Source: a virus. From it: a DNA stretch of 64,000 nucleotides. The stretch is taken from positions 62,001 through 126,000 of the IMG/VR virus record IMGVR_UViG_3300018080_000116. The stretch is one strand, 5' to 3'. The position numbers and the translations under genes were made by a program. Each line of letters begins with the position of its first letter. Positions within the stretch are counted from its first letter, which is position 1. The notes below the pieces were generated by a model that was given only the letters and a program-made list of their open reading frames with translations, searched no databases and was not told the origin of the DNA. Positions 6,112 through 21,106 of the stretch are shown here, piece after piece.

Positions 6112-6464
6112 TGAGCAACGAAACACTCGCCGACCGTAAGGCCACACTCGAACGTATCAGTGGTCTCACCGTCACCATACGCACTGAGAAGAACCAGCGT
6201 GTCTTCTCCTTCGCCCGGCCCGAGACACCACACCTGCATGTCAAGGAAGCCTGGACCTACCCCAAAGCCAAGTGCTTCGCCGAAGGTGTGCGAGTGGGGC
6301 GTGATCTAGGGGCCATGCAAGGCATGAACAAAGCCATCGCCATCGCCGAGCATCTAAGGGACAACCCTGACATCGCCGAGGCAGCCGCACGAGCACACGG
6401 CCTCCAACCACCAGAAGACACCGGAGCTATAAGAACTAGGATCGAGTGGGGAGATCAATCCTGA
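6111..6464 (+). CDS. hypothetical protein, 117 aa
   Basis: TAATG overlap with the previous stop; the longer in-frame start at 6078 is rejected for that reason. Mixed alpha/beta protein with a helical end (AIAIAEHLRDNPDIAEAAARAHG). Its 3' end runs into the first GGATATATCC-type repeat block. Confidence 0.65.
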   Translation: MSNETLADRKATLERISGLTVTIRTEKNQRVFSFARPETPHLHVKEAWTYPKAKCFAEGVRVGRDLGAMQGMNKAIAIAEHLRDNPDIAEAAARAHGLQPPEDTGAIRTRIEWGDQS

Positions 6465-6503
6465 GAGATATATCCTGCCAGGATATATCCTATGGATGTA
6501 TCC
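6454..6503. promoter_or_regulatory. GGATATATCC iteron block 1
   Basis: Four repeats ending in ATCC at 6461, 6475, 6490 and 6503, so spaced 13-15 bases; the best copy GGATATATCC (6481-6490) is a perfect 10-bp palindrome. It sits just upstream of the beta-helix gene at 6554. Similar blocks occur at 12513-12535 and 21061-21106. Probably an operator for a DNA-binding protein; an RNA role is also possible because each copy exposes GGA. Confidence 0.6.
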
Positions 6504-6553
6504 TATGATGCACACAACCAAGCCCCACAACCCCCAACCAGGAGATCATAGTT

Positions 6554-7009
6554 GTGCAAGTACGAGTGAATAACAACGTCATCACCGTGCCCGAAGGGTC
6601 AAACGTCAACGTCATCAACAACCAAGTCTTCGTCAACGGCAAACCGTGGCTCGATACAGACCAAACAAAAGCCGCCCTCAATGATGGCGTACTCAAGGTC
6701 GTCGTCGAAGGGAACGCCCTCAACGTAGCTTGTGACTGTGCCCTTGAGGTCCAGGGTGACGTACAAGGCGACGTAAAGGCAGAAGGCAGCGTCAGGGTCG
6801 AAGGAAACGTAGGGCGCAACGTAGAGGCCGTTGGGAGCGTCCGTTGCGGTGGCGTGACCGGCTACGTGAAGTCAGATGGCACTGTCAACTGCGACAACGT
6901 GGGCGGCAACGTAGAAGCCGGTGGTAGCATCAAGGCTAATGACATCCAGGGCAATGCCAAAGCAGGTGGCAGCGTTAAGGCCAATCGCATCGGCAGCGCT
7001 TCCCTCTAA
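6554..7009 (+). CDS. bactofilin-like beta-helix protein, 151 aa
   Basis: GTG start with CAGGAGATC upstream. After about 65 residues (beta-rich NNNVITVPEGSNVNVINNQVFVNGKPW), residues 70-148 consist of short repeats of the form G-[ND]-V-x-[AV]-x-G-S-[VI] (VQGDVKAEGSV, VGRNVEAVGSV, VGGNVEAGGSI), the signature of a right-handed parallel beta-helix as in bactofilins and polymer-forming DUF583-type proteins. Bactofilins polymerise without nucleotides and scaffold cell-envelope processes. In a phage it might scaffold or build a fibre; this is inference. Confidence 0.65.
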   Translation: MQVRVNNNVITVPEGSNVNVINNQVFVNGKPWLDTDQTKAALNDGVLKVVVEGNALNVACDCALEVQGDVQGDVKAEGSVRVEGNVGRNVEAVGSVRCGGVTGYVKSDGTVNCDNVGGNVEAGGSIKANDIQGNAKAGGSVKANRIGSASL

Positions 7010-7095
7010 GGAAACGTCACCACTTAATAACAACCGAGCAAGCCCCGCAAAGCGTTACTACCGGACCATAATAAACCTCATAACAAAGCAGCCTC

Positions 7096-7302
7096 ATGGC
7101 CATCTCTCCCAACGAAATACTCAACAGGCTAATAGGTGACCTGAACGAAGCCCACGATCAATTACTACCAGATGGTAGACAACGTGACTTCGCACGAGCA
7201 CAAGAGGCAAGAGAGACCATCCAGCAGGCACTCAAGAAAGCCAGGAACCTCCAACGCTGCCTCCCTCTCAAACAGTTCGACCCCAATGACCTGGAAGACT
7301 AA
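7096..7302 (+). CDS. helical protein, 68 aa
   Basis: Last gene of the first operon, 86 bases after the beta-helix gene. Predicted two long helices (EILNRLIGDLNEAHDQL and ARAQEARETIQQALKKARNLQRC). No strong ribosome binding site is visible. Possibly a small DNA- or protein-binding helical hairpin; family unknown. Confidence 0.6.
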   Translation: MAISPNEILNRLIGDLNEAHDQLLPDGRQRDFARAQEARETIQQALKKARNLQRCLPLKQFDPNDLED

Positions 7303-7349
7303 ACACCATCCAGGGCGTTATTAGGACTGGTGGTGATGACATAGGACAA

Positions 7350-7376
7350 GCCCCACTCGCCGCAGGCGAGTGGGGC
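7350..7376. terminator. perfect hairpin, 12-bp stem, loop GCA
   Basis: Arms 7350-7361 and 7365-7376. Core CACTCGCC/GGCGAGTG is shared with the hairpins at 7741 and 7864. No T-run follows on either strand. Confidence 0.5.
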
Positions 7377-7740
7377 AGCGTCCATCTACTCCCAACCACC
7401 ATTTCTAAAACAAAACACCCCTTAATTCACATTCTTATTGTCTCATCAATCAAGCCAAAGTGGGATGGCTGCCCACCTGGGGCCTGAAAGGCTCTAGGAT
7501 CGTGGGAGAGAAGCCCAGATTGGATAAAAACATGGGTTTCAAGCCACAACCCCTTCTCACCGGTTAAGTCCTTGTTGGGACTAGGGCAGGACTAAGGTTA
7601 TTTTGCAGCAGCCATTTATGATCTGAATGGTAGTCCCTGCGCCCTGTTCTACATGATGTTCAACAGACCCGAGCCGAGGGGCGGCGACCGCATGTTCAAC
7701 ACCGGATCGGAATATAAACATTAAGATTCGAGCGGACATA

Positions 7741-7772
7741 ACCCACTCGCCACAGGCGAGTGGGTTTCTTTT
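7741..7772 (+). terminator. intrinsic terminator, 11-bp stem
   Basis: Arms 7741-7751 and 7755-7765, loop ACA, followed by TTCTTTT. Shares its core with two other hairpins in this gap. The best intrinsic terminator for transcripts leaving the first operon. Confidence 0.65.
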
Positions 7773-7863
7773 AACTTTAACACTATGAGACGCCGCCCAC
7801 CGATTATAAGTCTTATAACTGTCTCATAACTGTTGTTGAACATATTCCAGGCAACGTTATAAG

Positions 7864-7888
7864 ACTCACTCGCCTGCGGCGAGTGAGT
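7864..7888. terminator. perfect hairpin, 11-bp stem, loop TGC
   Basis: Arms 7864-7874 and 7878-7888; third copy of the CACTCGCC core. Its left arm overlaps the right half of the GTTATAAGAC inverted repeat (7856-7865). Confidence 0.5.
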
Positions 7889-7994
7889 CATGTCCTACAC
7901 CACGAGCACCGATTATATTGAAACTAATTCGACGGCGGGCCTCGGCTATAATGCAATGATGTTGCATATCAGCCGACAGGTGTAAGTCCACCAA

Positions 7995-8023
7995 GCGTGC
8001 TCCGGGCGTAGCCCGGAGCACGC
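7995..8023. terminator. perfect hairpin, 13-bp stem, loop GTA
   Basis: Arms 7995-8007 and 8011-8023, GC-rich, no T-run. One of several triloop hairpins in this gap. Confidence 0.5.
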
Positions 8024-8172
8024 AGTAGCATGTCCAACACCCTTGGAATCTTATCCAACAAGCACAAAACTTTAATTGAAATGATTCCAAACAAGTCTTT
8101 AAGAGTTGCGGGCCGCATGTCGAACAGAGGCGACGGCGAGGCGGCTTGATCGCTTGGTGTTGAGCGGGAGTT

Positions 8173-8203
8173 GACTGTCCCACTGCGAAGCAGTGGGACA
8201 GTC
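8173..8203. terminator. perfect hairpin, 14-bp stem, loop GAA
   Basis: Arms 8173-8186 and 8190-8203. No T-run on either strand. Confidence 0.5.
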
Positions 8204-8220
8204 AGTCGGCTTGTGCGACG

Positions 8221-8247
8221 ATGTGCCGCCCCTATACAACTGGTCTT
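8221..8247 (-). promoter_or_regulatory. promoter-like element, leftward copy (CAGTTGTATAGGGGCGG)
   Basis: Read leftward it gives ACAAGACCAGTTGTATAGGG followed by GCGGCA. The same string, with small changes, occurs rightward at 8354-8381, so the two form a long imperfect inverted repeat around an AT-rich block. A third, leftward copy is at 23032-23052. Confidence 0.4.
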
Positions 8248-8353
8248 GTGGATTTTGAGATTTATTATCCGATTTTTGAATTTGGATTTTTGGATTTGCG
8301 GCCTGCGATTTGTTGGACAAGTACAGATGTATGACACACATTGGCGAAACCTA

Positions 8354-8381
8354 CGACAAGATCAGTTGTATATGGGGGCGG
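8354..8381 (+). promoter_or_regulatory. promoter-like element, rightward copy (CAGTTGTATATGGGGGCGG)
   Basis: Mirror partner of 8221-8247. TGTATA followed by a G-run and GCGG matches the 3' half of the 13-copy promoter-like element, but no CGAACC box is present at the usual distance. Confidence 0.4.
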
Positions 8382-8389
8382 CAGGCCGG

Positions 8390-8416
8390 GCTCCTGGCGG
8401 CTGCGCCGCCAGGAGC
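8390..8416. terminator. perfect hairpin, 12-bp stem, loop TGC
   Basis: Arms 8390-8401 and 8405-8416, immediately upstream of the first full promoter-like element. A near-identical hairpin (CCTGGCGGC TGC GCCGCCAGG core) sits at 14448-14476, again just before such an element. Confidence 0.5.
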
Positions 8417-8439
8417 TAGAATAAATTTTAGAATTCAGC

Positions 8440-8472
8440 GAACCCTTTCGGCTGAGCCGTGTATAAGGGGGC
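8440..8472 (+). promoter_or_regulatory. promoter-like element P1
   Basis: GAACC at 8440-8444, 17 bases, TATAA at 8462-8466, then GGGGGCG. First of 13 copies. Precedes the gene at 8568 with a leader of about 95 bases that contains a 9-bp hairpin (8472-8497). Confidence 0.7.
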
Positions 8473-8497
8473 GGACCCGAGGTCATAGTCGGGTCCG
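8472..8497 (+). promoter_or_regulatory. 5'-leader hairpin
   Basis: Arms 8472-8480 and 8489-8497 (CGGACCCGA/TCGGGTCCG) right after the P1 start region, so it would sit at the 5' end of the transcript. May protect the RNA or tune expression. Confidence 0.45.
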
Positions 8498-8567
8498 GGC
8501 CGTCTGCCTGTCGGCCTGCAAAGGGTGCGAACCCCAACAGGCCCCGTTTTCACCCAAGGAGATCGAG

Positions 8568-8843
8568 ATGAGCGACACGAAGACCGCCGTCCGCAATTGG
8601 GACGGCTACGACCATGTTGGTCAGATCATGGCCTACGAGCAGGGCGATCTGGACGACGATCAGGCGATCCGCTTGATCCAGTACCTCGTGGACACCGGTT
8701 TGGCCTGGAGCCTCCAGGGTTCCTATGGCAGGATGGCCCAGAGGATGATCCAGGTGGGCCTCGTCGCCCCTCGGCCCAACCTCGCCCCGCTGTACGGCAG
8801 CGTGGAAGAGTACGTCGAGGACAACGAGTTTCAGCGAGGCTAA
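8568..8843 (+). CDS. DUF7417-like small protein, 91 aa
   Basis: ATG at 8568 with AAGGAGATCGAG upstream; the longer open frame would include the promoter. The core IMAYEQGDLDDDQAIRLI, QYLVDTGLAWSLQG, YGRMAQRMI, GLV matches a short family I know from many phage and mobile-element genomes (YEqGel-x-airLfQhLvdtGLaw-LQG-YGR), of unknown function. Monocistronic cassette: promoter P1, leader, gene, hairpin 8856-8883. Confidence 0.7.
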   Translation: MSDTKTAVRNWDGYDHVGQIMAYEQGDLDDDQAIRLIQYLVDTGLAWSLQGSYGRMAQRMIQVGLVAPRPNLAPLYGSVEEYVEDNEFQRG

Positions 8844-8855
8844 GACGATCAGCAG

Positions 8856-8883
8856 GCCCCTCCCCCGCTGGCGGGGGAGGGGC
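8856..8883 (+). terminator. perfect hairpin, 13-bp stem
   Basis: Arms 8856-8868 and 8871-8883 (GCCCCTCCCCCGC and its complement), followed by AGGAAAAAAG rather than T. Directly upstream of promoter-like element P2. Confidence 0.5.
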
Positions 8884-8896
8884 AGGAAAAAAGACC

Positions 8897-8929
8897 GAAC
8901 CTTTTCTGTGGAACTGTGTATAAGGGGGC
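8897..8929 (+). promoter_or_regulatory. promoter-like element P2
   Basis: GAACC at 8897-8901, 17-base spacer, TATAA at 8919-8923, then GGGGGCGAA. Drives the gene at 9057 through a leader of about 125 bases. Confidence 0.7.
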
Positions 8930-9056
8930 GAACCGAGTATTAGTGCCGTGGGGAGTTCACTTCGGGTCGTGTGCCCGTTGGAGCGTTGCGGCTAGTTCGA
9001 CAGGTTTCGAGGCACCTTCTGGCCTGTCATCGCACCTATCCTGAAAGGATGGACCG

Positions 9057-9986
9057 ATGGCAGACCGTACCTACACTCTGACGTTCAATTCCCTGACCCT
9101 GGATACCACGAACCTCCGCATGGACAAGCGAGGGGGTCAGGAGGTCATCGACTACTTCTTCCTCGATGACACGTACACGATCCAGGACGACGAGATCGTC
9201 GATGTCGCCACCTTCCGCAGGTTGCTGGAAGAGGGTGACGAGACGACAATCGTGGAGATCGACGGCGACCGGACGGTGTTGAAGGTCGAGATCGACCTGT
9301 ACCCGATCCACAAGCCCGATCCGCCGACGCTGGCGTGCATGAAGACGCACATGGACGGTGCCCACTGCGGTCTCGGCGACTGGTATGACGAGATCGAGCA
9401 GGGCATCCAGGAGGCGCTGAACCAGGGTCCGGAGCACGAGTGGACGACTGGTTGGTATGCCAGCAAGAAAGAGATCGCTTCCGCCCGGATCACCAATGCC
9501 GAGGGTGGCATCCGGATCGAGGTCTCGGTCTCTGACGACTTCGACACTCCCGGCATGGGCGAGCGAGTCATTCAGCACACCACCGACCTGGAGACGATCC
9601 GGACGGCGATCTACGAAGCGTGGGAGGGTGCAGAGGACGACCAAAAGGACAATCGTGCCTATGCAGGCTACAGCATCCTCACCGAGGTCGATCTGGCTGA
9701 ACATTGGAAGGGGTGCAACGTGTTCCCCGAGCCCAAGGGCAAGGGGCAGGTCTGCATTGACTACTACATCGCTTGTGTGAGTCCGTTTGACGAAGAGTTC
9801 CCGCCCGGCGACAATTATCACGAGTGGGGGTTCCAGGGCGGCAGCGACGACGTACCCAAGCACGTGAGGGACCAGCTTGCCGAATGGGCCGAGCGTCACA
9901 AATATGGTGATGCCGAGGGCGAGTCTCTGACCGTCGAAGGGTACACGATCAAACCCTGGGACGAAAATAAAATTGGAAAAGACTGA
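9057..9986 (+). CDS. hypothetical acidic protein, 309 aa
   Basis: ATG at 9057 with GAAAGGATGGACCG just upstream. Acidic and probably beta-rich in the first 85 residues (YTLTFNSLTLDTTNLRMD, TTIVEIDGDRTVLKVEIDLYP), then a middle part with HMDGAHCGLGDWYDEI and a C-terminal part with NYHEWGFQGG. No known family. Sole gene of its cassette, with its own promoter-like element upstream and another starting at its stop codon. Confidence 0.7.
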   Translation: MADRTYTLTFNSLTLDTTNLRMDKRGGQEVIDYFFLDDTYTIQDDEIVDVATFRRLLEEGDETTIVEIDGDRTVLKVEIDLYPIHKPDPPTLACMKTHMDGAHCGLGDWYDEIEQGIQEALNQGPEHEWTTGWYASKKEIASARITNAEGGIRIEVSVSDDFDTPGMGERVIQHTTDLETIRTAIYEAWEGAEDDQKDNRAYAGYSILTEVDLAEHWKGCNVFPEPKGKGQVCIDYYIACVSPFDEEFPPGDNYHEWGFQGGSDDVPKHVRDQLAEWAERHKYGDAEGESLTVEGYTIKPWDENKIGKD

Positions 9987-10017
9987 ACCTTTTAAGAGGG
10001 TCGGTGTATAAGGGGGC
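9985..10017 (+). promoter_or_regulatory. promoter-like element P3
   Basis: GAACC starts at 9985, inside the stop codon (TGA 9984-9986) of the preceding gene; TATAA at 10007-10011 after 17 bases, then GGGGGCGA. Short leader to the gene at 10059. Confidence 0.7.
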
Positions 10018-10058
10018 GACGGCAACATTGCCGTCGCCCCTATCCGAAGGAGAACCCC

Positions 10059-10535
10059 ATGAGCGACCTTTATCGACGCCGGTTGGAAGCACGAGTCAAG
10101 GCAGTCAACCGAGCCCACGCCGAGGCCAATCGCCTGTGTGCCCTGTTTCGAGCCCATTTCACCGATCTGGTGGGCAAGAAGATTCTGACCGTTGACGGCA
10201 ACTTCATGGCCCGAGTCAAGCAGGCGATGCCCGAATTGCCCCATACGGACGGCCTGATGGTGTATCGCTACCGCAGCGAGTATTCTCTGACGTTCGTGGT
10301 CAAGACGAACGAGATGATCGAGGGCGAGCACTCCTGCCTGTACTATGAAGCGTCGTTCGACGTGGGCAACCTGGACGGCCAGAACCTCAAAGAGATCGAC
10401 CAGCGCCCGTGTGAGTACCGGACGGACTTCACGGCGGAAGAGATCGCCGACCTGCGAGCGGATTACCAGCAGAAGCAGAAGATCGCCGACGCTGCCAAAT
10501 CGGCCTTGTACCCCTTTGGCGAGCACGACAGATAA
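10059..10535 (+). CDS. hypothetical protein, 158 aa
   Basis: ATG at 10059 with GAAGGAGAACCCC upstream. Helical N-terminus (RRLEARVKAVNRAHAEANRLC), a beta-type middle (LMVYRYRSEYSLTFVVKT) and a helical C-terminus (FTAEEIADLRADYQQKQKIA). Soluble; family unknown. Single-gene cassette between P3 and P4. Confidence 0.7.
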   Translation: MSDLYRRRLEARVKAVNRAHAEANRLCALFRAHFTDLVGKKILTVDGNFMARVKQAMPELPHTDGLMVYRYRSEYSLTFVVKTNEMIEGEHSCLYYEASFDVGNLDGQNLKEIDQRPCEYRTDFTAEEIADLRADYQQKQKIADAAKSALYPFGEHDR

Positions 10536-10550
10536 AATTCAGAATTGACC

Positions 10551-10584
10551 GAACCCTTTGCGGCTGAGCCGTGTATAAGGGGGC
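10551..10584 (+). promoter_or_regulatory. promoter-like element P4
   Basis: GAACC at 10551-10555, 18-base spacer, TATAA at 10574-10578, then GGGGGCGAAC. Spacer GCGGCTGAGCCG is nearly the same as in P1. Upstream of the gene at 10686. Confidence 0.7.
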
Positions 10585-10685
10585 GAACCTGGGAGGCAAC
10601 AAACGGCTGGCGGGTAGATGTGCCCTTCGCATCCTTAGAAAAGCCAGCGGCCTCCCACCTTTCTGTCACTCAGTTGGAGAACCCC

Positions 10686-11687
10686 ATGTCGTATCACGAA
10701 GCCACCCAAGCGTTGGAACGTTGCCTGCTCGACCGTCGTCTGGTCGGCAGCAACCAGTACGTTGTGTCCAGCAGCACGCTGGAACCGGATGGACGCCGCC
10801 GCAAGGCGCTGATCCGCCGCCTTCTCAAGGAAGGCATGATGACCGCCCACGAGCAGGGTATGCTCGATGCCTTCGATCCCACCGACAAGGTGTTGACCGG
10901 CCTGACGCCGGATGTCGTGGACTTCAAGGCCAAGTGGGAAGAGGGTCGTCGTGACCGTGAGGTCCGCTACTACGCTCGTGACCGCTGGTTCATCCGGTTC
11001 GAGGAACTGAGCTACGCCGAGCGGCTGGGCATCCTCGATCTGGCAGGTGAGATGGGGGTCCGCTTCTACGTCGTGGATGGCACGCCGCTGAACTACTCGG
11101 CGAGCCACTATGCCGACGAGCCCGGCATCCAAGAGGATCGAGGCTCGTGCGAGTGGCACGGCCCGTTTGCGACCCTGGATCAGGCTCAGGAGCAGCGGTC
11201 GAAGTGCTACGCTCGCAGCAGTGGTATGCGGTGCGGCTACGAGATTGTGTTCGACACCGAGGAACTGGAAGCCCACATCGACGAAGCCTGCTTCGAGGAA
11301 CGGTTCCAGGAATACTACCCGAAGCTCTTCGCCTGGGCGCTGGTCAAGTGCGGCATCCTGTCCGAAGACGAGGCATACGAGACGTACCAGCAGGGCGACG
11401 AGACCAAGAAGCGCCCGCTGGTGACCGTCGCCGATGGGCACGGTCTCATCATCGGCAACCGAGCCAACGTGTCGGCCAAGCCCGACCAGTGGCAGGCCGA
11501 TGTCACCAAGGGCATCGACCGCCTGATCGACCAGATCGCCCAGGCCCAGGCCAAGCTGGAACTGTATCGCAAGATCGAGAAGGGGCTGGCGGCATACGTC
11601 GGTGGGTTCGCACAGTTCCTCGAAGACTACAAGGGACACCTGCGGACGGCCTTGCAGCAGGAAGACAACGAAGCCGAAGCAGCCTGA
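10686..11687 (+). CDS. hypothetical protein, 333 aa
   Basis: ATG at 10686 has TTGGAGAACCCC upstream; the frame is open to 10545 but that stretch contains the promoter. Helical N-terminal 90 residues with basic patches (DGRRRKALIRRLLKEGMM), a middle with FIRFEELSYAERLGILDLAGEMG and a C-terminal coiled region (GIDRLIDQIAQAQAKLELYRKIEKG). No known family. The coiled C-terminus suggests oligomerisation. Confidence 0.7.
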   Translation: MSYHEATQALERCLLDRRLVGSNQYVVSSSTLEPDGRRRKALIRRLLKEGMMTAHEQGMLDAFDPTDKVLTGLTPDVVDFKAKWEEGRRDREVRYYARDRWFIRFEELSYAERLGILDLAGEMGVRFYVVDGTPLNYSASHYADEPGIQEDRGSCEWHGPFATLDQAQEQRSKCYARSSGMRCGYEIVFDTEELEAHIDEACFEERFQEYYPKLFAWALVKCGILSEDEAYETYQQGDETKKRPLVTVADGHGLIIGNRANVSAKPDQWQADVTKGIDRLIDQIAQAQAKLELYRKIEKGLAAYVGGFAQFLEDYKGHLRTALQQEDNEAEAA

Positions 11688-11705
11688 TTGGGGAGTTGCA
11701 ACCCT

Positions 11706-11738
11706 GAGCCCCCGGCCCTTGGGCCGGGGGCTCCTTCT
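11706..11738 (+). terminator. strong GC hairpin with short T-rich tail
   Basis: Arms 11706-11717 and 11722-11733 (GAGCCCCCGGCC and complement), then CTTCTAA. Separates the gene ending at 11687 from the next cassette. Confidence 0.6.
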
Positions 11739-11739
11739 A

Positions 11740-11754
11740 AGTTCGGATGTATAA
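11740..11754 (+). promoter_or_regulatory. promoter-like element, class II (AGTTCGGATGTATAA)
   Basis: Second conserved element of the region: AGTNC-x-x-ATGTATAA. Placed directly after the hairpin and 15 bases before the gene at 11769, so its transcript would have almost no leader. Confidence 0.5.
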
Positions 11755-11768
11755 CGGAGCCCCATACC

Positions 11769-11909
11769 ATGACAGCCAACAGGTTCAACGCCCTTTGTTG
11801 CGAAGCCCTAGTCCACCCGGCGATTGCTCTTGAGAACGAAGAGATCGTCGAGGCATTGCGGCAGAGGAATGACGCCAGGGTCGAGGCCCTGTTGCGAGAG
11901 GAATTCTAA
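11769..11909 (+). CDS. micro-protein, 46 aa
   Basis: ATG at 11769 with ACGGAGCCCCATACC upstream. Small helical protein (NEEIVEALRQRNDARVEALLREEF). Overlaps the next start as TAATG. Function unknown. Confidence 0.6.
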   Translation: MTANRFNALCCEALVHPAIALENEEIVEALRQRNDARVEALLREEF

Positions 11910-12315: not shown

Positions 12316-12469
12316 GCGCACCATCCCCATCGAATGTGAGCCGGGCGGCGGCTACATCATACTGACCGCCGACGAGTTCGACCGACTCCAGCAGGGCGAG
12401 CCGGTCAAGAAGCGTAGCGGCGACTGCCGTGGCGACTTCGAGATTGTCGCCCAAATAGTTCGAAAATAA
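12281..12469 (+). CDS. hypothetical protein, 62 aa
   Basis: ATG at 12281 follows AGGAGAGACC. Beta-rich with IPIECEPGGGYIILTADEFDRLQQGEP, then a basic end (KKRSGDCRGDFEIVAQIVRK). Family unknown. Promoter-like element P5 begins two bases after its stop. Confidence 0.6.
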   Translation: MILGSSHHKNTERTIPIECEPGGGYIILTADEFDRLQQGEPVKKRSGDCRGDFEIVAQIVRK

Positions 12470-12471
12470 CC

Positions 12472-12505
12472 GAACCCTTTCCCCACCAGCCGTGTATAAG
12501 GGGGC
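12472..12505 (+). promoter_or_regulatory. promoter-like element P5
   Basis: GAACC at 12472-12476, 18-base spacer, TATAA at 12495-12499, then GGGGGCGA. Followed at once by iteron block 2, so the block would lie in the first 40 transcribed bases. Confidence 0.7.
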
Positions 12506-12512
12506 GACCCCA

Positions 12513-12535
12513 GGATACATCCGTAGGATATATCC
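12513..12535. promoter_or_regulatory. GGATRYATCC iteron block 2
   Basis: GGATACATCC (12513-12522) and GGATATATCC (12526-12535), exactly 13 bases apart. Located between P5 and the gene at 12560, a position that fits a roadblock operator or an RNA-level control site. Confidence 0.6.
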
Positions 12536-12559
12536 CACTCAGTCAGGAGAGACTCGCAC

Positions 12560-12820
12560 ATGTCCCATCCCACCGCCCAAGAGGTCGCAGACATCCTCAG
12601 TAGCTTTGTCAATGGCATGAGGAGCGACGACGTGGCAGAACTGGTCGATCTGATGCAGCGTGACCACCCGACCTTGGTCACCAACAAGGGCCGACTTTTT
12701 CTGGCCTTCTTCGAGGCCGGAACTGATGACAACGGCGACCTGCGGCGTGAGGCCCTGGCCAAGCTATCCCAGGCCATTGCCGATCTGCCGGTCGAGGTAA
12801 AGCACCTACCGTACATATGA
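12560..12820 (+). CDS. helical protein, 86 aa
   Basis: ATG at 12560 with CAGGAGAGACTCGCAC upstream. Mainly alpha-helical (AQEVADILSSFVNGM, DVAELVDLMQRDHPTLV, REALAKLSQAIADLPVEV). No named family. It is the target of the P5/iteron control unit. Confidence 0.65.
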   Translation: MSHPTAQEVADILSSFVNGMRSDDVAELVDLMQRDHPTLVTNKGRLFLAFFEAGTDDNGDLRREALAKLSQAIADLPVEVKHLPYI

Positions 12821-15253: not shown

Positions 15254-15287
15254 GAACCTTTTTTGATCTTGTGTGTATAAGGGGGCG
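15254..15287 (+). promoter_or_regulatory. promoter-like element P7
   Basis: GAACC at 15254-15258, 17-base spacer, TATAA at 15276-15280, then GGGGGCGAAC. Unlike other copies it precedes an RNA-type segment, not an open reading frame. Confidence 0.7.
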
Positions 15288-15474
15288 AACGGTGGGTGAG
15301 CAGCCCCGCAAGTCGCAGCAAGGCACGCTGCGAGCCGTCCCAGGCCGACCCGCTGACGAGGCAAACAGGCCATTCACTGATCCCCGCTCGTCTCAACCGT
15401 TATCAGTGTGGGTTGAGTGGTGTAAGGCGCAAGCCAGGGGGCACACCCAACATGGCGTTGGGAGGTACGAGGGT

Positions 15475-15543
15475 TCGATCATGGTGTAGTGGTAGCACAC
15501 CGGCGTGCAGCCGGAAGTATGGGTTCGAGTCCCATTGATCGTC
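15475..15543 (+). tRNA. tRNA-like gene with atypical anticodon arm (Cys GCA or Ala TGC)
   Basis: T arm is perfect (ATGGG-TTCGAGT-CCCAT, 15519-15535). Acceptor arms TCGATCA (15475-15481) and TGATCGT (15536-15542) pair at six of seven positions. D arm GTGT...GCAC has the usual GG in its loop. The anticodon arm is odd: CCGGC-GTGCA-GCCGG gives a five-base loop, or CCGG with a seven-base loop CGTGCAG that lacks U33. Total is 69 bases, about two short. No CCA is encoded (TCTTA follows), which fits the CCA-adding enzyme at 47486. Could be a functional oddity, a tRNA mimic or a decayed tRNA. Confidence 0.55.
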
Positions 15544-15551
15544 TTATCTGC

Positions 15552-15710
15552 GGTACGACTGCTGGCCCAGAGAGGTCAGCAGGTAGGGAATAGAGTCCTG
15601 TAGGAGTGCGAGATCGCTGCTGTGTACGAGGTGGGGAACCCGGCACGAGTGGCCCTTTGAGCCTACAGGTGAATACCGGAGAACGTCAGCCCCGTGGCGT
15701 TGAGCGTACC
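15552..15710 (+). ncRNA. candidate structured RNA
   Basis: Nested inverted repeats: GGTACG (15552-15557) with CGTACC (15705-15710) closes the unit; inside are TGCTGGCC (15561-15568) with GGTCAGCA (15575-15582), and CCTGTAGG (15597-15604) with CCTACAGG (15662-15669). Lies downstream of P7 and the tRNA-like gene. I do not recognise it as RNase P, tmRNA, 6S or SRP RNA. Based on base pairing only. Confidence 0.35.
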
Positions 15711-15869
15711 AACGAAACATGATTCGCTGCTTTGTGGTGTAATGTCAGCACTCTCGCCTTGAGTACCCGAGTCCGAGCCCCTGGTCATGCGGAGGGCAGA
15801 CGACTCGGCGAAATTGGCGGGGGGTCCGGGTGCATAGTCCCGGCTGAGCGGCGTTTTAAAAATTATGCC

Positions 15870-15902
15870 GAACCCTTTTCAGTTTGGCGTGTATAAGGGT
15901 GC
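15870..15902 (+). promoter_or_regulatory. promoter-like element P8
   Basis: GAACC at 15870-15874, 17-base spacer, TATAA at 15892-15896, then GGGTGCGAAC. Drives the gene at 15936. Confidence 0.7.
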
Positions 15903-15935
15903 GAACATCACGCACCTTTTAACGGAGTGGTCCCC

Positions 15936-16298
15936 ATGCTGAATCGAAAGATTGCCCTTTACGTCCCTGGCACAACTGACGTGAACGTGCCCGCCCCCGA
16001 GCAGCAGGCAGCCGCCGTTGTCCATGCTCTCGAACAGTTCGCCGAGTGGTTCGGTGGGGCGACCGTGATCGACGGTCAAGGGGCGTGGATGAGCGACGAA
16101 CACGGTCTCGTGGTCGAGCCCGTCCGCATCGTCTACTGCTTCACCGACGCCGAGGGATTGGCCAAGCATCTGAGTGAAGTCAAGCTGTTGGCCCGGCACG
16201 TCTGCCGAGCCATGTCCCAAGAGTGTGTCAGTCTGGAAGTGGCTGGCGAGTTGCAGTTCATCGAAGTCGCCGAGGTCGCCGACGAGAAGGTGGCCTAG
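15936..16298 (+). CDS. conserved-type small protein, 120 aa
   Basis: ATG at 15936 with ACGGAGTGGTCCCC upstream, preferred to the GTG at 15927. The sequence has the cadence of a known uncharacterised family of mobile elements: HALEQFAEWFGGATVIDGQG, AWMSDEHGLVVEPVRIVY, then a helix with HVCRAMSQECVSLEV. The middle phrase recalls DUF3574-type proteins (ferredoxin-like fold), a distant guess. Followed by a strong terminator. Confidence 0.6.
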   Translation: MLNRKIALYVPGTTDVNVPAPEQQAAAVVHALEQFAEWFGGATVIDGQGAWMSDEHGLVVEPVRIVYCFTDAEGLAKHLSEVKLLARHVCRAMSQECVSLEVAGELQFIEVAEVADEKVA

Positions 16299-16308
16299 TG
16301 TCCCATCT

Positions 16309-16340
16309 GAGCCCCCTGGGCATCGCCCAGGGGGCTCTTT
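16309..16340 (+). terminator. intrinsic terminator, 13-bp stem
   Basis: Arms 16309-16321 and 16325-16337 (GAGCCCCCTGGGC and complement), loop ATC, followed by TTTGAG. Confidence 0.7.
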
Positions 16341-16370
16341 GAGTGTCCCCTGACCAACGGAGCCAAAACC

Positions 16371-16634
16371 ATGAAGTCGCACGCACGCCCCCGTCTGGCA
16401 GCCGAGACGATTCCGCCGTTGACCGGTGCCTCGGTGATCCAGCCCGGCCACCCGTACTACACTCAGTACGTCAAGTGGCTCGAAGCCCGCAAGGCCGAGC
16501 TAGGCCCCGAGGCAGCCGTGAGCAACAAGCGCAAGGGGCGTTTGTTCTTGGCAGCCCATCCGCACCTGAAGCGCTGTTGGGAAGGCGTGATCCTTCACGC
16601 CCGCCGAATCGAGGCCGAGAAAAAAGCAGCATAA
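16371..16634 (+). CDS. small basic protein, 87 aa
   Basis: ATG at 16371 with AACGGAGCCAAAACC upstream. Basic protein (VKWLEARKAEL, SNKRKGRLFLAAHPHLKRCWEGVILHARRIEAEKK). No promoter element lies between the terminator and the start, so it may depend on read-through. Nucleic-acid binding is plausible from charge only. Confidence 0.6.
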   Translation: MKSHARPRLAAETIPPLTGASVIQPGHPYYTQYVKWLEARKAELGPEAAVSNKRKGRLFLAAHPHLKRCWEGVILHARRIEAEKKAA

Positions 16635-16638
16635 GACC

Positions 16639-16671
16639 GAACCCTTTTTCGTTTCGTGTGTATAAGGGGGC
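16639..16671 (+). promoter_or_regulatory. promoter-like element P9
   Basis: GAACC at 16639-16643, 17-base spacer, TATAA at 16661-16665, then GGGGGCGAAC. Starts five bases after the previous stop; leads to the gene at 16770. Confidence 0.7.
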
Positions 16672-16769
16672 GAACCGAGCAGAACGAAAGACCGGAACAA
16701 GACTAAACAGGTTTGGTTATTCCTGGTTCTGCTCTTTCCTAACCCCCATTCCTTACGGAGACCCGGATC

Positions 16770-17504
16770 ATGTTGCGAAGCGTCGAGAAGCCCAATTCCC
16801 CCGTCCTGTCCGACCCCTTGTTCATCATGGCCATCGTGCCGATCCTCGCCGCCTTCCGCCGCATGGGCGAGCGGATCGCCGATCTGGTGGCCGTCGAAGA
16901 TGACAACCTCGAACCCGTGTTCGACAAGCGGATCGAGCAAAACAACCTGGGCGTGGTCGTCGATGGCCTGTCGCCCGTGGTGATCGAGACCGCCCGCTAT
17001 TCGATGCGAGTCGGCGGCAAGCTGGTTGTCAGTGCCGAAGCCAAGTCCCTGCTGGTCGATGGCGAGTTGTACGACTTCGACATGACTTGTGCGTGGCATC
17101 CCCAGGTCGAAGTCGAAATGCAGGCCCTCTTGAAGCGCCTGAACGTCCCGATCCTCTTGTTGATGGCAGGTCTCGGCTACAACCTGCGGCCCCGCCACGA
17201 GGTCATTCCCGGCCTGCTGGTGATCCACCTGGGCCAGAAGAAGGTCGAGCCCAATTCCGCCGCACAGGCCCCCTTCCGGCCCGCTGAGGCCGCTTCCGAT
17301 GGCCCGAGCGTCATGTACCCCGGCCACCACAACGAGGGCTACCAGCCCGCCCAGGAGCCCGTGCGTTGCTCCTGCCAGGACGACAACCCCTCGTGGGACG
17401 GCCCGAGCAACTGTGCCGGTTGCGAGAACTTCGCCATCTGCCACCCGGCAGCCGCCGCCGAGGCCAACGTGTTCGTGGGAGAGCCGCTTCGCAAGGCCGC
17501 ATGA
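16770..17504 (+). CDS. hypothetical protein with C-terminal Cys cluster, 244 aa
   Basis: ATG at 16770 with TTACGGAGACCCGGATC upstream. Residues 15-35 are hydrophobic-helical, then an alpha/beta body (VVIETARYSMRVGGKLVVSAEAKSLLVDGELYD). The C-terminal 50 residues carry CSCQDDNPSWDGPSNCAGCENFAIC, a six-Cys cluster that may bind zinc or an Fe-S centre. No family recognised. Confidence 0.65.
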   Translation: MLRSVEKPNSPVLSDPLFIMAIVPILAAFRRMGERIADLVAVEDDNLEPVFDKRIEQNNLGVVVDGLSPVVIETARYSMRVGGKLVVSAEAKSLLVDGELYDFDMTCAWHPQVEVEMQALLKRLNVPILLLMAGLGYNLRPRHEVIPGLLVIHLGQKKVEPNSAAQAPFRPAEAASDGPSVMYPGHHNEGYQPAQEPVRCSCQDDNPSWDGPSNCAGCENFAICHPAAAAEANVFVGEPLRKAA

Positions 17505-17516
17505 TCCGGCCCGGCT

Positions 17517-17556
17517 TGCCTGCCGCCGCCCGGCGCAGCGGCGGCAGGCAGCCATT
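17517..17556 (+). terminator. strong hairpin, 13-bp stem, AT-rich tail
   Basis: Arms 17517-17529 and 17538-17550 (TGCCTGCCGCCGC and complement), then GCCATTTATTTT. Just upstream of P10. Confidence 0.6.
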
Positions 17557-17573
17557 TATTTTAGAATTAGACC

Positions 17574-17606
17574 GAACCTTTGCCCGCCATCTGTGTATAA
17601 GAGGGC
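17574..17606 (+). promoter_or_regulatory. promoter-like element P10
   Basis: GAACC at 17574-17578, 17-base spacer, TATAA at 17596-17600, then GAGGGCGAAC (one G changed to A). Precedes the gene at 17644. Confidence 0.7.
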
Positions 17607-17643
17607 GAACAAAGTTTCTGTCCCCAACCTTACGGAGAACCTC

Positions 17644-18420
17644 ATGTCCAACGCACCCATCCAGTACGTGACCGAGAACGAGTTGATCGGCATTTTGACC
17701 CGGATCAACACCGCCCAACCCTTCGGCGTGGTCGCCCTGACCATGCCCTCGTGCTTCTCGACTCGCAGGGGCGGCAGCCGCAAGAAAACGGAGCCGCTCT
17801 GCCCGCCCGTGATGAAGCGGCAGCGTGTCAGCGGCATCAGCAACTTCGATTACCTGCGCAGCCGCAACAACGACAACGCCCGTGAGTGGTCCCGGCAGGT
17901 CGAAGCGCTGAAGGCCGAGGGCAAGACCAAAGAGGCGGCAGACCTGGAACAGCAGGGGCCGGAACAGCACGAGTTGGGCAGCCGCAGCGACGACCGTGAG
18001 CGGATCGAGGGCACCGTCCTGGTCCGCCGCCCGTCCACCGGCCACGTCTACCTGCAAATGATGATCCCGACCGGCCATCACCCCTCGTGGCCCAAGGGTC
18101 GCCACGAAACGAGCTACTGTTACCTGCCCGATCATCGTGGCCTGCTGCTGGAAAGCTACGCCAAGGGCAAGCCGAGCAAGGCCCATGCCGAGGCGTACCC
18201 CGAGCACGTGTTGGCAGCCATACCCGCCGTCGAGTACAGCCTGGAAGGCGATGGCGATGAAAGCCTCGCCGACTGGCTCAAGCCGTACAAGCGGCGAGAC
18301 GACGAGCCGCACGACTTCGACTACCGTGAGTACCGCTTCGATCATATCCTCGAAGTGCGTGCCGAGGGCATCCGCTACATCGTCCGCCGTGGCGAGGAAG
18401 CCCAGGCGAAGACCGCATAA
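17644..18420 (+). CDS. hypothetical protein, 258 aa
   Basis: ATG at 17644 with TTACGGAGAACCTC upstream. Contains KRQRVSGISNFDYLRSRNNDNAREW and a central beta-type region ERIEGTVLVRRPSTGHVYLQMM. Several His- and Arg-rich loops. Soluble, family unknown. The gene ends at a textbook terminator. Confidence 0.65.
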   Translation: MSNAPIQYVTENELIGILTRINTAQPFGVVALTMPSCFSTRRGGSRKKTEPLCPPVMKRQRVSGISNFDYLRSRNNDNAREWSRQVEALKAEGKTKEAADLEQQGPEQHELGSRSDDRERIEGTVLVRRPSTGHVYLQMMIPTGHHPSWPKGRHETSYCYLPDHRGLLLESYAKGKPSKAHAEAYPEHVLAAIPAVEYSLEGDGDESLADWLKPYKRRDDEPHDFDYREYRFDHILEVRAEGIRYIVRRGEEAQAKTA

Positions 18421-18434
18421 CGGTTTGGGGACCG

Positions 18435-18476
18435 GCCCGGCTGCGTGATAAGGAGCGCAGCCGGGCACTCTTTTTT
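18435..18476 (+). terminator. intrinsic terminator with six-T tail
   Basis: Arms 18435-18445 (GCCCGGCTGCG) and 18456-18466, loop of 10, followed by ACTCTTTTTT. One of the clearest rho-independent terminators of the window. Confidence 0.8.
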
Positions 18477-18484
18477 GCACCGCA

Positions 18485-18499
18485 AGTTCGCATGTATAA
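18485..18499 (+). promoter_or_regulatory. promoter-like element, class II (AGTTCGCATGTATAA)
   Basis: Same AGTNC-x-x-ATGTATAA pattern, directly behind the terminator and 12 bases before the gene at 18512. Confidence 0.5.
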
Positions 18500-18511
18500 C
18501 AGGACACGACC

Positions 18512-18754
18512 ATGCTGAAATCAAGCGACCCCAACAACACCGAAGACCTTGTTTCGATCTTCAACGAGTGGGCCGAAAACACGTTTGTGTGGCCCGCTGG
18601 CCACGAGCCCCAAATGACATCGTTTTTTGAGCACGGCCAGTGGTGGGTGCAAGACATCAACAGCGATGCCACCTGGAGCGTCGTAGATGCGGAAGGTGGC
18701 GATGCCGTCGCCGGTTACAGTTTCGAGCAGATCACCGATGGGGAACTGGCATGA
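18512..18754 (+). CDS. hypothetical acidic protein, 80 aa
   Basis: ATG at 18512 with AGGACACGACC upstream. Trp-rich acidic protein (FNEWAENTFVWPAGHEPQ, EHGQWWVQDINSDATWSVVDAEGGD). First of three coupled genes; function unknown. Confidence 0.65.
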   Translation: MLKSSDPNNTEDLVSIFNEWAENTFVWPAGHEPQMTSFFEHGQWWVQDINSDATWSVVDAEGGDAVAGYSFEQITDGELA

Positions 18755-19014
18755 CACTGGACCCCACCGACGAACGCCGAGCCGAACACGGCCACCTAAC
18801 ACCAGCCCAACATGAAGCCCTGATGGAAGCCTGTGTGCAGGTGTATATGGCGGCGGATGGCATCGAGACCGTCCCCGAGTATGCCGCCCGAGCCGCCCTG
18901 GCAGGCGAAGGGCCAGACACGCTCGCCGCCATGCTGCCCGACGACACCGATCACTGCCGCCGCCTGGGCGTCAACTTCGATCCCGAAACCGGAGAGGAAT
19001 GGCCCGATGAATAA
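18751..19014 (+). CDS. hypothetical protein, 87 aa
   Basis: ATGA overlap with the previous gene. Helical (LTPAQHEALMEACVQVYMAADGIETV), ends with DPETGEEWPDE. Unknown family. Confidence 0.65.
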   Translation: MTLDPTDERRAEHGHLTPAQHEALMEACVQVYMAADGIETVPEYAARAALAGEGPDTLAAMLPDDTDHCRRLGVNFDPETGEEWPDE

Positions 19015-19357
19015 CGTAGACAGCAGCCACGTGCAGATCACCGTCACCTGCGAGCGCTGCGGCCACACCTGGGACGTTGAAGACTATGATGCCCTGAGTG
19101 TGCAGGCCGCTGAGCAGGCCGCAAGGGAAGCCGAGTGCCAGAACTGCAACGCCACGTCCCGGCAGGTGAGGTTCTACAACATCAAGTGGGACACCACCGA
19201 CGACGATCACCCGGACGGCCAGGACGTGGATCTGCCCGACGACGTGACCCTCGAAGTCGATGGCGACGTGGACCTGGACACCGAGGGTGCCGACGTGCTC
19301 AGCGACAAATACGGCTGGTGCGTGTTCAGCTTCGACTATGAAGAGACCGAACCTTAG
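19007..19357 (+). CDS. zinc-ribbon protein with acidic tail, 116 aa
   Basis: Eight-base overlap with the previous gene (ATGAATAA). Starts with VQITVTCERCGHTWDVEDYDALSVQAAEQAAREAECQNC: two CxxC knuckles separated by about 26 residues, the layout of rubredoxin-like zinc ribbons. The C-terminal half is very acidic (DGQDVDLPDDVTLEVDGDVDLD). Its last codons contain the GAACC box of P11. Confidence 0.65.
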   Translation: MNNVDSSHVQITVTCERCGHTWDVEDYDALSVQAAEQAAREAECQNCNATSRQVRFYNIKWDTTDDDHPDGQDVDLPDDVTLEVDGDVDLDTEGADVLSDKYGWCVFSFDYEETEP

Positions 19358-19382
19358 CGCCCCTTCGTGTGTATAAGGGTGC
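19349..19382 (+). promoter_or_regulatory. promoter-like element P11, overlapping a gene end
   Basis: GAACC at 19349-19353 lies inside the coding sequence of the preceding gene (its last sense codons read GAA CCT), with an 18-base spacer, TATAA at 19372-19376 and GGGTGCGAAA. Drives the gene at 19397. Confidence 0.7.
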
Positions 19383-19396
19383 GAAAGGAAACCACC

Positions 19397-19762
19397 ATGC
19401 AAGAGATCAGCGCCTTTGCCATTCTGATCGCCAGCGACGGCGAGCCCATTCGAGTCCACCCCCAGATGGCCGGTGTGAAAACCGGCTTCGCCCGGATCGG
19501 CAACCCCTACTTCGACGGCGATCCCGATTGGCGACTCAAGGACGGCAACACCGTCATCGAGTGCCAACCCAGCGACTCCAGGGCGATCCCCGTGGCCGAT
19601 GCCTACCAGAAACTACGAGCAGCCTGGGAGGCGGAAGCGGCTGAACTCCAGGCCGAGGAAGAGGCGTGGGAACGTGAGTGGGCCGAGCGCAACGAACAAC
19701 GCAGGTGGGACGAAACCATCGGCCACCTGTACCTCATCCAAGATCGTTTAATGGGAATCTAA
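19397..19762 (+). CDS. hypothetical protein, 121 aa
   Basis: ATG at 19397 with AAAGGAAACCACC upstream. N-terminal half beta-type (AFAILIASDGEPIRVHPQM), C-terminal half a long charged helix (AEAAELQAEEEAWEREWAE). Family unknown. Single-gene cassette between P11 and P12. Confidence 0.65.
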   Translation: MQEISAFAILIASDGEPIRVHPQMAGVKTGFARIGNPYFDGDPDWRLKDGNTVIECQPSDSRAIPVADAYQKLRAAWEAEAAELQAEEEAWEREWAERNEQRRWDETIGHLYLIQDRLMGI

Positions 19763-19764
19763 CC

Positions 19765-19797
19765 GAACCTTTTGCGGCGAACTGTGTATAAGAGTGC
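19765..19797 (+). promoter_or_regulatory. promoter-like element P12
   Basis: GAACC at 19765-19769, 17-base spacer, TATAA at 19787-19791, then GAGTGCGAAA. Two bases after the previous stop. Confidence 0.7.
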
Positions 19798-19811
19798 GAA
19801 AGGACGCCACC

Positions 19812-19964
19812 ATGCTTTACTCAGTCCCCTACCGACGAACGGACGGCAGCCTCGACAGCTATTTTCTGTTCACCAACAGACAGCCCCCGGAAGGGGCCAG
19901 CCCCGTTCTGATCCCCAACAAGGAACCCAAACATGAGCCAGCCGACTTATCGAAGGCTGCCTGA
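19812..19964 (+). CDS. micro-protein, 50 aa
   Basis: ATG at 19812, ten bases after AAAGGACGCC, close behind P12. Product MLYSVPYRRTDGSLDSYFLFTNR... then Pro-rich. Its last 32 bases overlap the next gene in another frame. Function unknown. Confidence 0.55.
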   Translation: MLYSVPYRRTDGSLDSYFLFTNRQPPEGASPVLIPNKEPKHEPADLSKAA

Positions 19965-20358
19965 CGGCAGCGTGACCGTGGATGCACCCGGCACCTGCGG
20001 CAAGCCGTTCGCCAACGTCCTGCGGATCGTCGAAGACGACAACGCCAACCCCGGCATCAAGATCACCACGTCCAGCGGCATCGTGGGTAGCAACCTGCTG
20101 CGGCAGGTGCTCGCCGACCTGGAGTCTGGCGATTACCTGCTCAAGATGACCGAGGGCGGACCCGAGCCCCCTCGCCCCTCGATCACCGTCCGGTGGGGCA
20201 GCGAGAGCACCCGCAAAGACAACCCCGACCTGGAAGACGGCGACAAGTTCGAGTTCGACACCGAGGCCGAGGTCAACGCCTTCACCGAAGCACTCGCCGC
20301 CGCCGATGGATGGGCCGAGTGGGAGATCATCGAACCGGAGGACGAGACCACCAACTGA
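19933..20358 (+). CDS. hypothetical protein, 141 aa
   Basis: ATG at 19933 with CAAGGAACCCAAAC upstream. Beta-rich beginning (YRRLPDGSVTVDAPGTCG), acidic second half (DNPDLEDGDKFEFDTEAEVNAFTEAL). Family unknown. Followed by a strong terminator at 20486. Confidence 0.65.
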   Translation: MSQPTYRRLPDGSVTVDAPGTCGKPFANVLRIVEDDNANPGIKITTSSGIVGSNLLRQVLADLESGDYLLKMTEGGPEPPRPSITVRWGSESTRKDNPDLEDGDKFEFDTEAEVNAFTEALAAADGWAEWEIIEPEDETTN

Positions 20359-20485
20359 ACACCACCACCGCAGCCCGGTGGCACCTAACCAAAGCCCGCA
20401 CCCAAGGGTGTGCGTGAGCAGGGGGTGAGGCCGAACACATAAAGCCTCATGGGCCTGCAACCAGTACAACCTCTTTTCTCCTGAG

Positions 20486-20520
20486 CGCCCACCGGCCCGA
20501 GGCCGGTGGGCGTTTTTATT
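20486..20520 (+). terminator. intrinsic terminator with T-run
   Basis: Arms 20486-20497 (CGCCCACCGGCC) and 20501-20512, loop CGA, followed by TTTTTATTTT. Very clear. Confidence 0.85.
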
Positions 20521-20533
20521 TTCAAATTACACC

Positions 20534-20567
20534 GAACCCCAGGCAGGCGAGCCGTGTATAAGGGGGC
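20534..20567 (+). promoter_or_regulatory. promoter-like element P13
   Basis: GAACC at 20534-20538, 18-base spacer, TATAA at 20557-20561, then GGGGGCGAAA. Last copy of the series; drives the gene at 20583 with a very short leader. Confidence 0.7.
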
Positions 20568-20582
20568 GAAAGGAACAATGCC

Positions 20583-21056
20583 ATGACCAAGCAACTGACC
20601 CTCATCGACAACGACTTCACCATCGACAAGCGGTTCGTGCTTGGTGGCAAGGCCGTCTTCACGGTCTCGAACAACAAGGGTCAGCACTACACCTACTTGG
20701 TGCAGCACAAGCCCGCCGACGACAAGTACCCCGAGGCGTACTTCGTCCGGTTGCTGACCGGCCCGGACAACATGGGCGATTACACGTACCTGGGCAAGCT
20801 CGACCAGCGTACCGGTTTCATGCAGTTGTCCCCCAAGAGCAAGATGAACGCCGACTCCCTGCCGGTCAAGGTCGTCCGCTGGGCATTGGCAAGGGTTATC
20901 TGGCCCGAGGCCCAGGTGCCCGAGGGCTACGGCATCCACGGCGAGGGTCGCTGCGGTCGCTGTGGTCACCCTCTCACTCACCCCGATGGGGTCAGCCCCG
21001 AGGGTCACCGGTTCGGATTCGGCCCGACCTGCTGGGCCAAACTCGTTGGAGGCTAA
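20583..21056 (+). CDS. DUF6011-type zinc-knuckle protein, 157 aa
   Basis: ATG at 20583 with AAAGGAACAATGCC upstream. First 115 residues are a beta-rich domain (KAVFTVSNNKGQHYTYLV, AYFVRLLTGPDNMGDYTYLG). The C-terminus GRCGRCGHPLTHPDGVSPEGH followed by RFGFGPTCWAKL is the DUF6011 motif (CgrCGrpLt...G.GptC), a small zinc-binding domain common in phage and actinobacterial proteins. Function unknown; a substrate-recognition role in the N-terminal domain is possible. Confidence 0.7.
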   Translation: MTKQLTLIDNDFTIDKRFVLGGKAVFTVSNNKGQHYTYLVQHKPADDKYPEAYFVRLLTGPDNMGDYTYLGKLDQRTGFMQLSPKSKMNADSLPVKVVRWALARVIWPEAQVPEGYGIHGEGRCGRCGHPLTHPDGVSPEGHRFGFGPTCWAKLVGG

Positions 21057-21060
21057 GAGA

Positions 21061-21106
21061 TCAATCCCAGCGATATATCCCACCGATGTATCCTGGGGAA
21101 GTATCC
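21061..21106. promoter_or_regulatory. GATATATCC iteron block 3
   Basis: Four repeats ending in ATCC at 21067, 21080, 21093 and 21106, spaced exactly 13 bases. Closely resembles block 1 including the leading GATCAATCC. Between the gene ending at 21056 and the gene starting at 21140. Confidence 0.6.

What the first reader, a model, noticed from the sequence alone, without database searches (positions are those of the whole stretch)
6454..21106. Three blocks of 13-base-spaced GGATATATCC repeats
Seen: blocks at 6454-6503, 12513-12535 and 21061-21106 hold two to four copies ending in ATCC, spaced 13-15 bases (exactly 13 in blocks 2 and 3). The best copy is a perfect palindrome. Block 2 lies between a promoter-like element and its gene. 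Inference: phased operator for a regulator, with 13-base steps giving an unusual non-helical phase; or RNA sites, since each copy displays GGA, the core of CsrA sites, and a CsrA homologue is encoded at 36216.
Basis: partly seen in the sequence, partly recalled or inferred. Interest (0 to 1): 0.65.

Follow-up and report, generated by a model that had tools for sequence, protein, structure and literature searches.

The report
Dispersed phage operator arrays, 13-bp steps
A large uncultured bacterial virus carries clusters of a short half-symmetric DNA word, repeated about every 13 bases between its genes; a related virus has the same clusters right at its own special promoters, so they are most likely docking sites for a protein that switches viral genes off.

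Summary
The repeats are real. Across the 138-kb phage genome there are 18 copies of GATNNATCC(T)R in five intergenic places (six clusters). Steps are mostly 13 bp. Dinucleotide shuffles give about 0.01 such pairs against 9 seen.

The decisive evidence came from relatives. The nearest structural relative (G001, 130.8 kb) has the same word at 13-bp steps in its early region. Five of its arrays or units sit at members of a 64-copy phage-specific promoter family, just upstream or downstream of the -10. Block 2 sits the same way at one of about 22 related promoters of this phage. In G001 the units point opposite to transcription; here they mostly point along it. A sequence-specific RNA signal such as CsrA/GGA therefore does not fit, while a DNA operator does. 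An unrelated 40-kb temperate phage (G054) has eight exact GGATGTATCC, including one between two divergent HTH_3 genes.

Best reading: dispersed operator arrays for a repressor-like DNA-binding protein, not yet identified. CsrA is really encoded but is not supported as the ligand. New variant of a known kind, interest about 0.45.

The parts
6452..6503 (+). Array 1: four units (AGATCAATCC, AGATATATCC, GGATATATCC, GGATGTATCC), steps 14/15/13; the first unit overlaps the end of ORF 6111-6464
12513..12535 (+). Array 2: two units (GGATACATCC, GGATATATCC), step 13, about 13 bp downstream of the -10 of a phage promoter
21058..21106 (+). Array 3: four units (AGATCAATCC, CGATATATCC, CGATGTATCC, GGAAGTATCC), step exactly 13; begins 2 bp after the stop codon of ORF 20583-21056
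12469..12507 (+). Class-A phage promoter (CCGAACCCTTT...GTGTATAAGGGGGCGA) directly upstream of array 2; one of about 22 related copies, all on the + strand, genome 12,880-82,555
   Evidence: score 52.5; best in shuffled genome 11.7
12560..12820 (+). ORF downstream of promoter plus array 2 (86 aa, no family)
6111..6464 (+). ORF upstream of array 1 (117 aa)
6554..7009 (+). ORF downstream of array 1 (beta-solenoid-like, FapA E=0.001, below cut-off)
20583..21056 (+). ORF upstream of array 3 (DUF6011 at its C-terminus), led by class-A promoter at 20555
21140..21481 (+). ORF downstream of array 3 (113 aa, no family)
36216..36422 (-).
5284..5469 (+).

Best explanation
The blocks are arrays of DNA operators. 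Each unit, about 11-12 bp (GATRTATCCTR) with an 8-bp palindromic core GAT-NN-ATC, binds one protomer or dimer of a sequence-specific DNA-binding protein. Two to four units in tandem (up to about seven in the relative) raise occupancy. At promoters the protein covers the -35/upstream side or the start site and keeps the polymerase off. Between genes of one operon it would block or shed elongating polymerase, as stoperators do. Shown: the arrays, their non-chance nature, their intergenic placement, conservation in a relative at phage promoters, and independence of orientation. Inferred: protein binding, repression rather than activation, and the roadblock role. Not known: the protein, which may be phage- or host-encoded.
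For: (1) 9 pairs vs 0.01 in shuffles; 18 units in five intergenic places although only about 10% of the genome is non-coding. (2) Units are conserved between arrays: 7-9 of 9 bases match unit by unit between the three four-unit arrays, and all three start with GATC(A/G)ATCC. (3) The nearest structural relative G001 (mostly 43-72% protein identity over the structural block) has GGATRYATCC 16 times (shuffled 0.45) in arrays with the same 13-bp step. (4) In G001, array units lie at five members of a 64-copy promoter family, unit centres -16/-33/-47, +19 to +45, -17, -35 to -89 and +15/+34 from the -10 start; here block 2 lies at +25/+38 of one. Sites on both sides of the -10 suit a repressor better than an activator. 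(5) Orientation against transcription is opposite in G001, as expected for a DNA site with a palindromic core. (6) Unrelated temperate phage G054: eight exact GGATGTATCC vs 0.055 in shuffles, among its most over-represented words, with a site and a one-mismatch site between two divergent HTH_3 genes.
Against: No protein has been linked to the site: the phage's ParB-like, sigma-like, winged-helix and CsrA proteins have no detectable counterpart in G001, though both records may be incomplete. Only one of this phage's five places has a recognisable class-A promoter. In G001 14 of 30 early-region units lie within 80 bp of a promoter where 26% of positions do, only a modest excess, and the largest G001 cluster (120,913-121,388) lies in a non-coding stretch without such a promoter. 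Variable steps (13-16 bp) argue against rigid side-by-side cooperativity.
Confidence: 0.6

Rival explanations
1. RNA-level element: tandem units fold into hairpins in the mRNA between cistrons or in the leader and control translation, decay or termination (with or without CsrA).
For: Units pair with one another; the 8339-8446 region folds at -45.5 kcal/mol, z about -5, and block 3 at z -3.2; four of six clusters fold better on the coding strand; arrays sit between cistrons or in leaders.
Against: Any tandem of near-palindromes folds this way on either strand. Central bases of neighbouring units often do not pair (AC/AC at 494, CA/AT at 83058, AC/CG at 8394-8407). Two clusters fold better on the non-coding strand. 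The strictly conserved ATCC is mostly on the coding strand here but on the opposite strand in G001. No Rfam match. GGA is missing from 6 of 18 units.
Confidence: 0.13
2. DNA site for replication, segregation or genome organisation rather than transcription (iteron/centromere-like sites for a ParB-like or initiator protein), with gene-edge placement because only gaps tolerate them.
For: A ParB-like protein is encoded at genome 16964-17875 (a ParB-like PHROG family matches at 7e-9 in the set scanned; ParB_N 0.001 and HTH_ParB 0.015 for this protein). G001 has its biggest cluster in a long non-coding stretch. Tandem spacing resembles iterons.
Against: No ParA-type ATPase motif found. No ParB-like match in G001, which has the arrays. 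Sites are spread over more than 80 kb and touch individual promoters, with unit centres 15-19 bp from the -10 start at four G001 promoters.
Confidence: 0.17
3. Neutral or selfish short repeats copied around the genome without function.
For: Arrays are similar to each other and lie in gaps; two share some flank (ATCCTGGTCCA at 494-525 and 8437-8455).
Against: Units are conserved while the spacers between them are not; the same word and step survive in a phage with mostly 43-72% protein identity; no terminal repeats or target duplications seen; placement at promoters in G001.
Confidence: 0.1

Closest known systems
Stoperators/operators of Cluster A mycobacteriophages (L5 repressor; PMC9283540)
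   Same: Short repressor sites dispersed over a phage genome, in promoters and in short intergenic gaps
   Different: Stoperators are 13-bp asymmetric sites, bound by a repressor monomer, that must point along transcription; here units are half-palindromic, come in tandem arrays, and orientation differs between loci and between related phages; no repressor identified
Start-associated sequences of Cluster K mycobacteriophages (PMC3203893)
   Same: Dispersed short phage-specific repeats in front of a subset of genes, absent from most other phages
   Different: SAS are tied to translation initiation sites and include bases that can pair with 16S rRNA; here the distance to the start is 10-60 bp and the ribosome-binding site is separate
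Phage P1 C1 operators (from memory, not tested)
   Same: Many dispersed operators of one repressor in a large phage genome
   Different: Different, 17-bp asymmetric sequence, mostly single sites
CsrA/RsmA GGA sites (general knowledge)
   Same: A CsrA homologue is encoded and several units contain GGA
   Different: The conserved half is ATCC, GGA is often missing on the coding strand, units are self-paired rather than GGA-in-loop, and G001 lacks a detectable CsrA

Membership tests
Dispersed phage operators (generic) | Same word at several intergenic sites, far above chance | tested here: met
Dispersed phage operators (generic) | Sites overlap or abut promoters | tested here: met
   Block 2; five G001 promoters; not seen for the other four places of this phage
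Dispersed phage operators (generic) | Bound by an identified regulator | not testable with these tools
   No shared regulator found
Cluster A stoperators | Orientation follows the direction of transcription | tested here: not met
   Reversed at genome 8339-8446 and in the G001 arrays
Cluster A stoperators | Site sequence related to the L5-type 13-mer and an L5-type repressor encoded | not tested
   No such repressor appeared among the family matches shown, but those lists were truncated and no direct search was made
Start-associated sequences | Tied to the start codon with a built-in ribosome-binding site | tested here: not met
   Array-to-start distances 10, 24, 33, 50, 59 bp
CsrA sites | GGA present in each site on the transcribed strand, preferably in a hairpin loop | tested here: not met
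   12 of 18 units have GGA on the coding strand; where units fold, GGA is mostly in stems
CsrA sites | CsrA encoded alongside | tested here: met
   Pfam CsrA 7e-20; but no match in G001, which has the arrays
ParB/parS-like centromere | ParA partner and ParB encoded with the sites | tested here: inconclusive
   ParB-like present, no ParA-type P-loop found, ParB-like not found in G001

The most novel reading that the evidence does not exclude
One operator word, GGATRTATCCTR, is shared by two related large phages and an unrelated 40-kb temperate phage because all three answer to the same regulator, most simply a conserved host protein. The arrays would then be a cross-phage regulon in which large phages gate a few of their many private promoters by a host signal.
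Probability: 0.15. Interest if true: 0.75.

Novelty: new variant of a known kind. Interest (0 to 1): 0.45.

Why it matters
Little is known about gene control in large uncultured phages. This finding gives a concrete regulatory grammar for one lineage: 22-64 copies of a private promoter plus a small set of array operators that mark a few of them. It also gives DNA baits from which the unknown regulator could be fished. If the regulator proves to be a host protein, it would show how such phages read host state.

Tried and rejected
Exact GATNNATCC pairs in 42 structural relatives found nothing: the pattern was too strict and missed G001, which was caught later by counting single units. Three-unit pattern in all IMG/VR: 30 stretches, nearly all coding repeats of period 12 or 15. 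Exact-13 two-unit pattern: 0 in IMG/VR; 12 isolated pairs in bacterial/archaeal genomes, some terminator-like, none an array. These scans may omit records very near the window's genome. Class-A promoter pattern in IMG/VR: 0. Host identification by the PilM-like gene: none. Rfam: only a tRNA. Family scans of the called proteins for an obvious repressor: none among the families shown (lists truncated). The S24-peptidase-like protein (genome 28302-28628, 108 aa) has no room for an HTH domain and was dismissed as a LexA/CI-type repressor. Relatives of a G054 HTH_3 protein: only distant ones, none with the word. Text search for GGATATATCC: nothing relevant. De novo array search in four phages was too noisy to rank.

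Full report
WHAT WAS CHECKED. The window is part of a 138,192-bp virus record (window = genome 62,001-126,000), 53% G+C. It encodes tail/baseplate proteins of a large myovirus-like lineage with at least 176 relatives in IMG/VR, the closest match among deposited phage records being an uncultured 595-kb phage at 46% identity. Two more places exist outside the window: genome 494/510, and 8339/8352 plus 8394/8407/8422/8437. Eighteen units give the consensus GATRTATCC(T)R: A at position 3 and ATCC at 7-10 are invariant, G2 and T4 17/18, a purine at 12 in 17/18, but the G at position 1 only 10/18. Pairs at 2-7 bases: 9 seen, 0.01 expected. Steps: seven of 13, one of 14, three of 15, one of 16.

ANATOMY. 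All clusters are intergenic or overlap the end of a gene: they begin 6 bp and 1 bp after stops, or overlap gene ends at genome 68464 and 8431. Block 2 is different: it lies just downstream of a phage-specific promoter. That promoter family (CCGAACC(C/T)TTT, about 10 bases, GTGTATAAGGGGGCGA) has about 22 copies, all on the + strand between genome 12,880 and 82,555; block 2's copy scores 52.5 while the best window in a shuffled genome scores 11.7 (the matrix was built from these copies). The four-unit arrays are similar unit by unit (7-9 of 9) while spacers differ. At genome 8339-8446 the units point against the flanking minus-strand genes, including an ORF of 183 aa (7777-8328) that starts 10 bp from the array.

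RELATIVES. Exact-pair searches failed at first, but counting single units in fetched genomes showed that the nearest structural relative, G001 (IMGVR_UViG_3300022555_003222, 130.8 kb, 64% identity in the baseplate protein), holds GGATRYATCC 16 times against 0.45 in shuffles. Its arrays again step by 13: for example 97706/97719/97732 and 107298/107311/107324. The structural genes of the two phages are collinear in opposite orientation; G001's early genes run on the minus strand but its ATCC halves point plus, so the units face against transcription there and mostly along it here. G001's early region also carries 64 copies of a related promoter (AGTCCNGGTGTATAAC). Array units sit at five of them: upstream at -16/-33/-47, -17 and -35 to -89, and downstream at +15/+34 and +19 to +45 relative to the -10 start. 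The overall excess of units near promoters is modest (14 of 30 within 80 bp; 26% of positions are that close). One array may be in an equivalent place: array 3 here and the 107298 array in G001 both lie several hundred bases upstream of the same shared gene (genome 83923-84735 and G001 106105-106587).

AN UNRELATED PHAGE. A search for pairs at 14-15 bases found a 39.8-kb IMG/VR contig, G054 (IMGVR_UViG_3300045141_000322), with eight exact GGATGTATCC against 0.055 in shuffles. It encodes a tyrosine integrase and two divergent HTH_3 proteins, with a site and a one-mismatch site between them. Other sites abut start codons or overlap a stop codon. No protein of G054 resembles one of this phage convincingly. 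G054 was reached through a search for this very word, so a chance match between two unrelated operator words cannot be excluded.

DNA OR RNA. Arrays fold well as RNA, but so would any tandem of near-palindromes. Central bases of neighbouring units often mismatch, two of six clusters fold better on the non-coding strand, and the word switches strand between related phages. GGA, needed for CsrA, is missing from six of eighteen units on the coding strand. CsrA is real but has no counterpart in G001, which may be incomplete. Operator placement on both sides of the -10 is typical of repression; that repression occurs is inference.

VERDICT. Operator arrays of a dispersed regulatory system (confidence 0.6), regulator unknown. 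The system differs from Cluster A stoperators in having tandem, half-palindromic, orientation-free sites (PMC9283540) and from Cluster K start-associated sequences in not being tied to start codons (PMC3203893).

Noticed in passing
window 8460, 8917, 10005, 10572, 12493, 14499, 15274, 15890, 16659, 17594, 19370, 19785, 20555 (TGTATAAG of each): Large phage-specific promoter family CCGAACC(C/T)TTT-N~10-GTGTATAAGGGGGCGA, about 22 copies genome-wide, all on one strand; a related family with 64 copies in G001. A sigma-like protein (genome 17957-19174; Sigma70_r2 0.02, and a sigma-factor PHROG at 4e-4 among the proteins scanned) could serve it. Possibly of more interest than the finding itself.
   Followed up: partly
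genome 10858, 30411, 33058, 60196 (L001 10858; L002 10411, 13058; L004 196): Second promoter-like family GTTTACAAT-N13/14-CTACAATT in front of several early genes.
   Followed up: no
window 30-38 kb, minus strand (e.g. 30173-30781, 30774-31283, 33792-34346, 35654-36223, 36436-37071, 37376-37927): Several small proteins with twin-arginine-type signals (RRDFLK/RRTFLK), plus a PilM-like gene at genome 579-1787; both would fit a planctomycete-like host, which was not established.
   Followed up: partly
window 53080-64000 (genome 115080-126542): A single open frame of 3,820 codons at the start of the tail gene block, tape-measure-like.
   Followed up: no
genome 1844-10463 (L001): Cargo of radical SAM proteins, polysaccharide deacetylase, glycosyltransferases, sulfotransferase and a nucleotide-sugar epimerase.
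   Followed up: no
G001 80-130 kb (L147-L149): The scanned G001 proteins include an IS605 OrfB/TnpB-type transposase (Cas12f1-like TNB domain); the exact ORF was not pinned down.
   Followed up: no
window 7290-8580: Long non-coding stretch with several near-identical G+C-rich hairpins (CACTCGCC...GGCGAGTG).
   Followed up: no
window 15475-15543: A single tRNA-Ala(TGC) between two class-A promoters.
   Followed up: no
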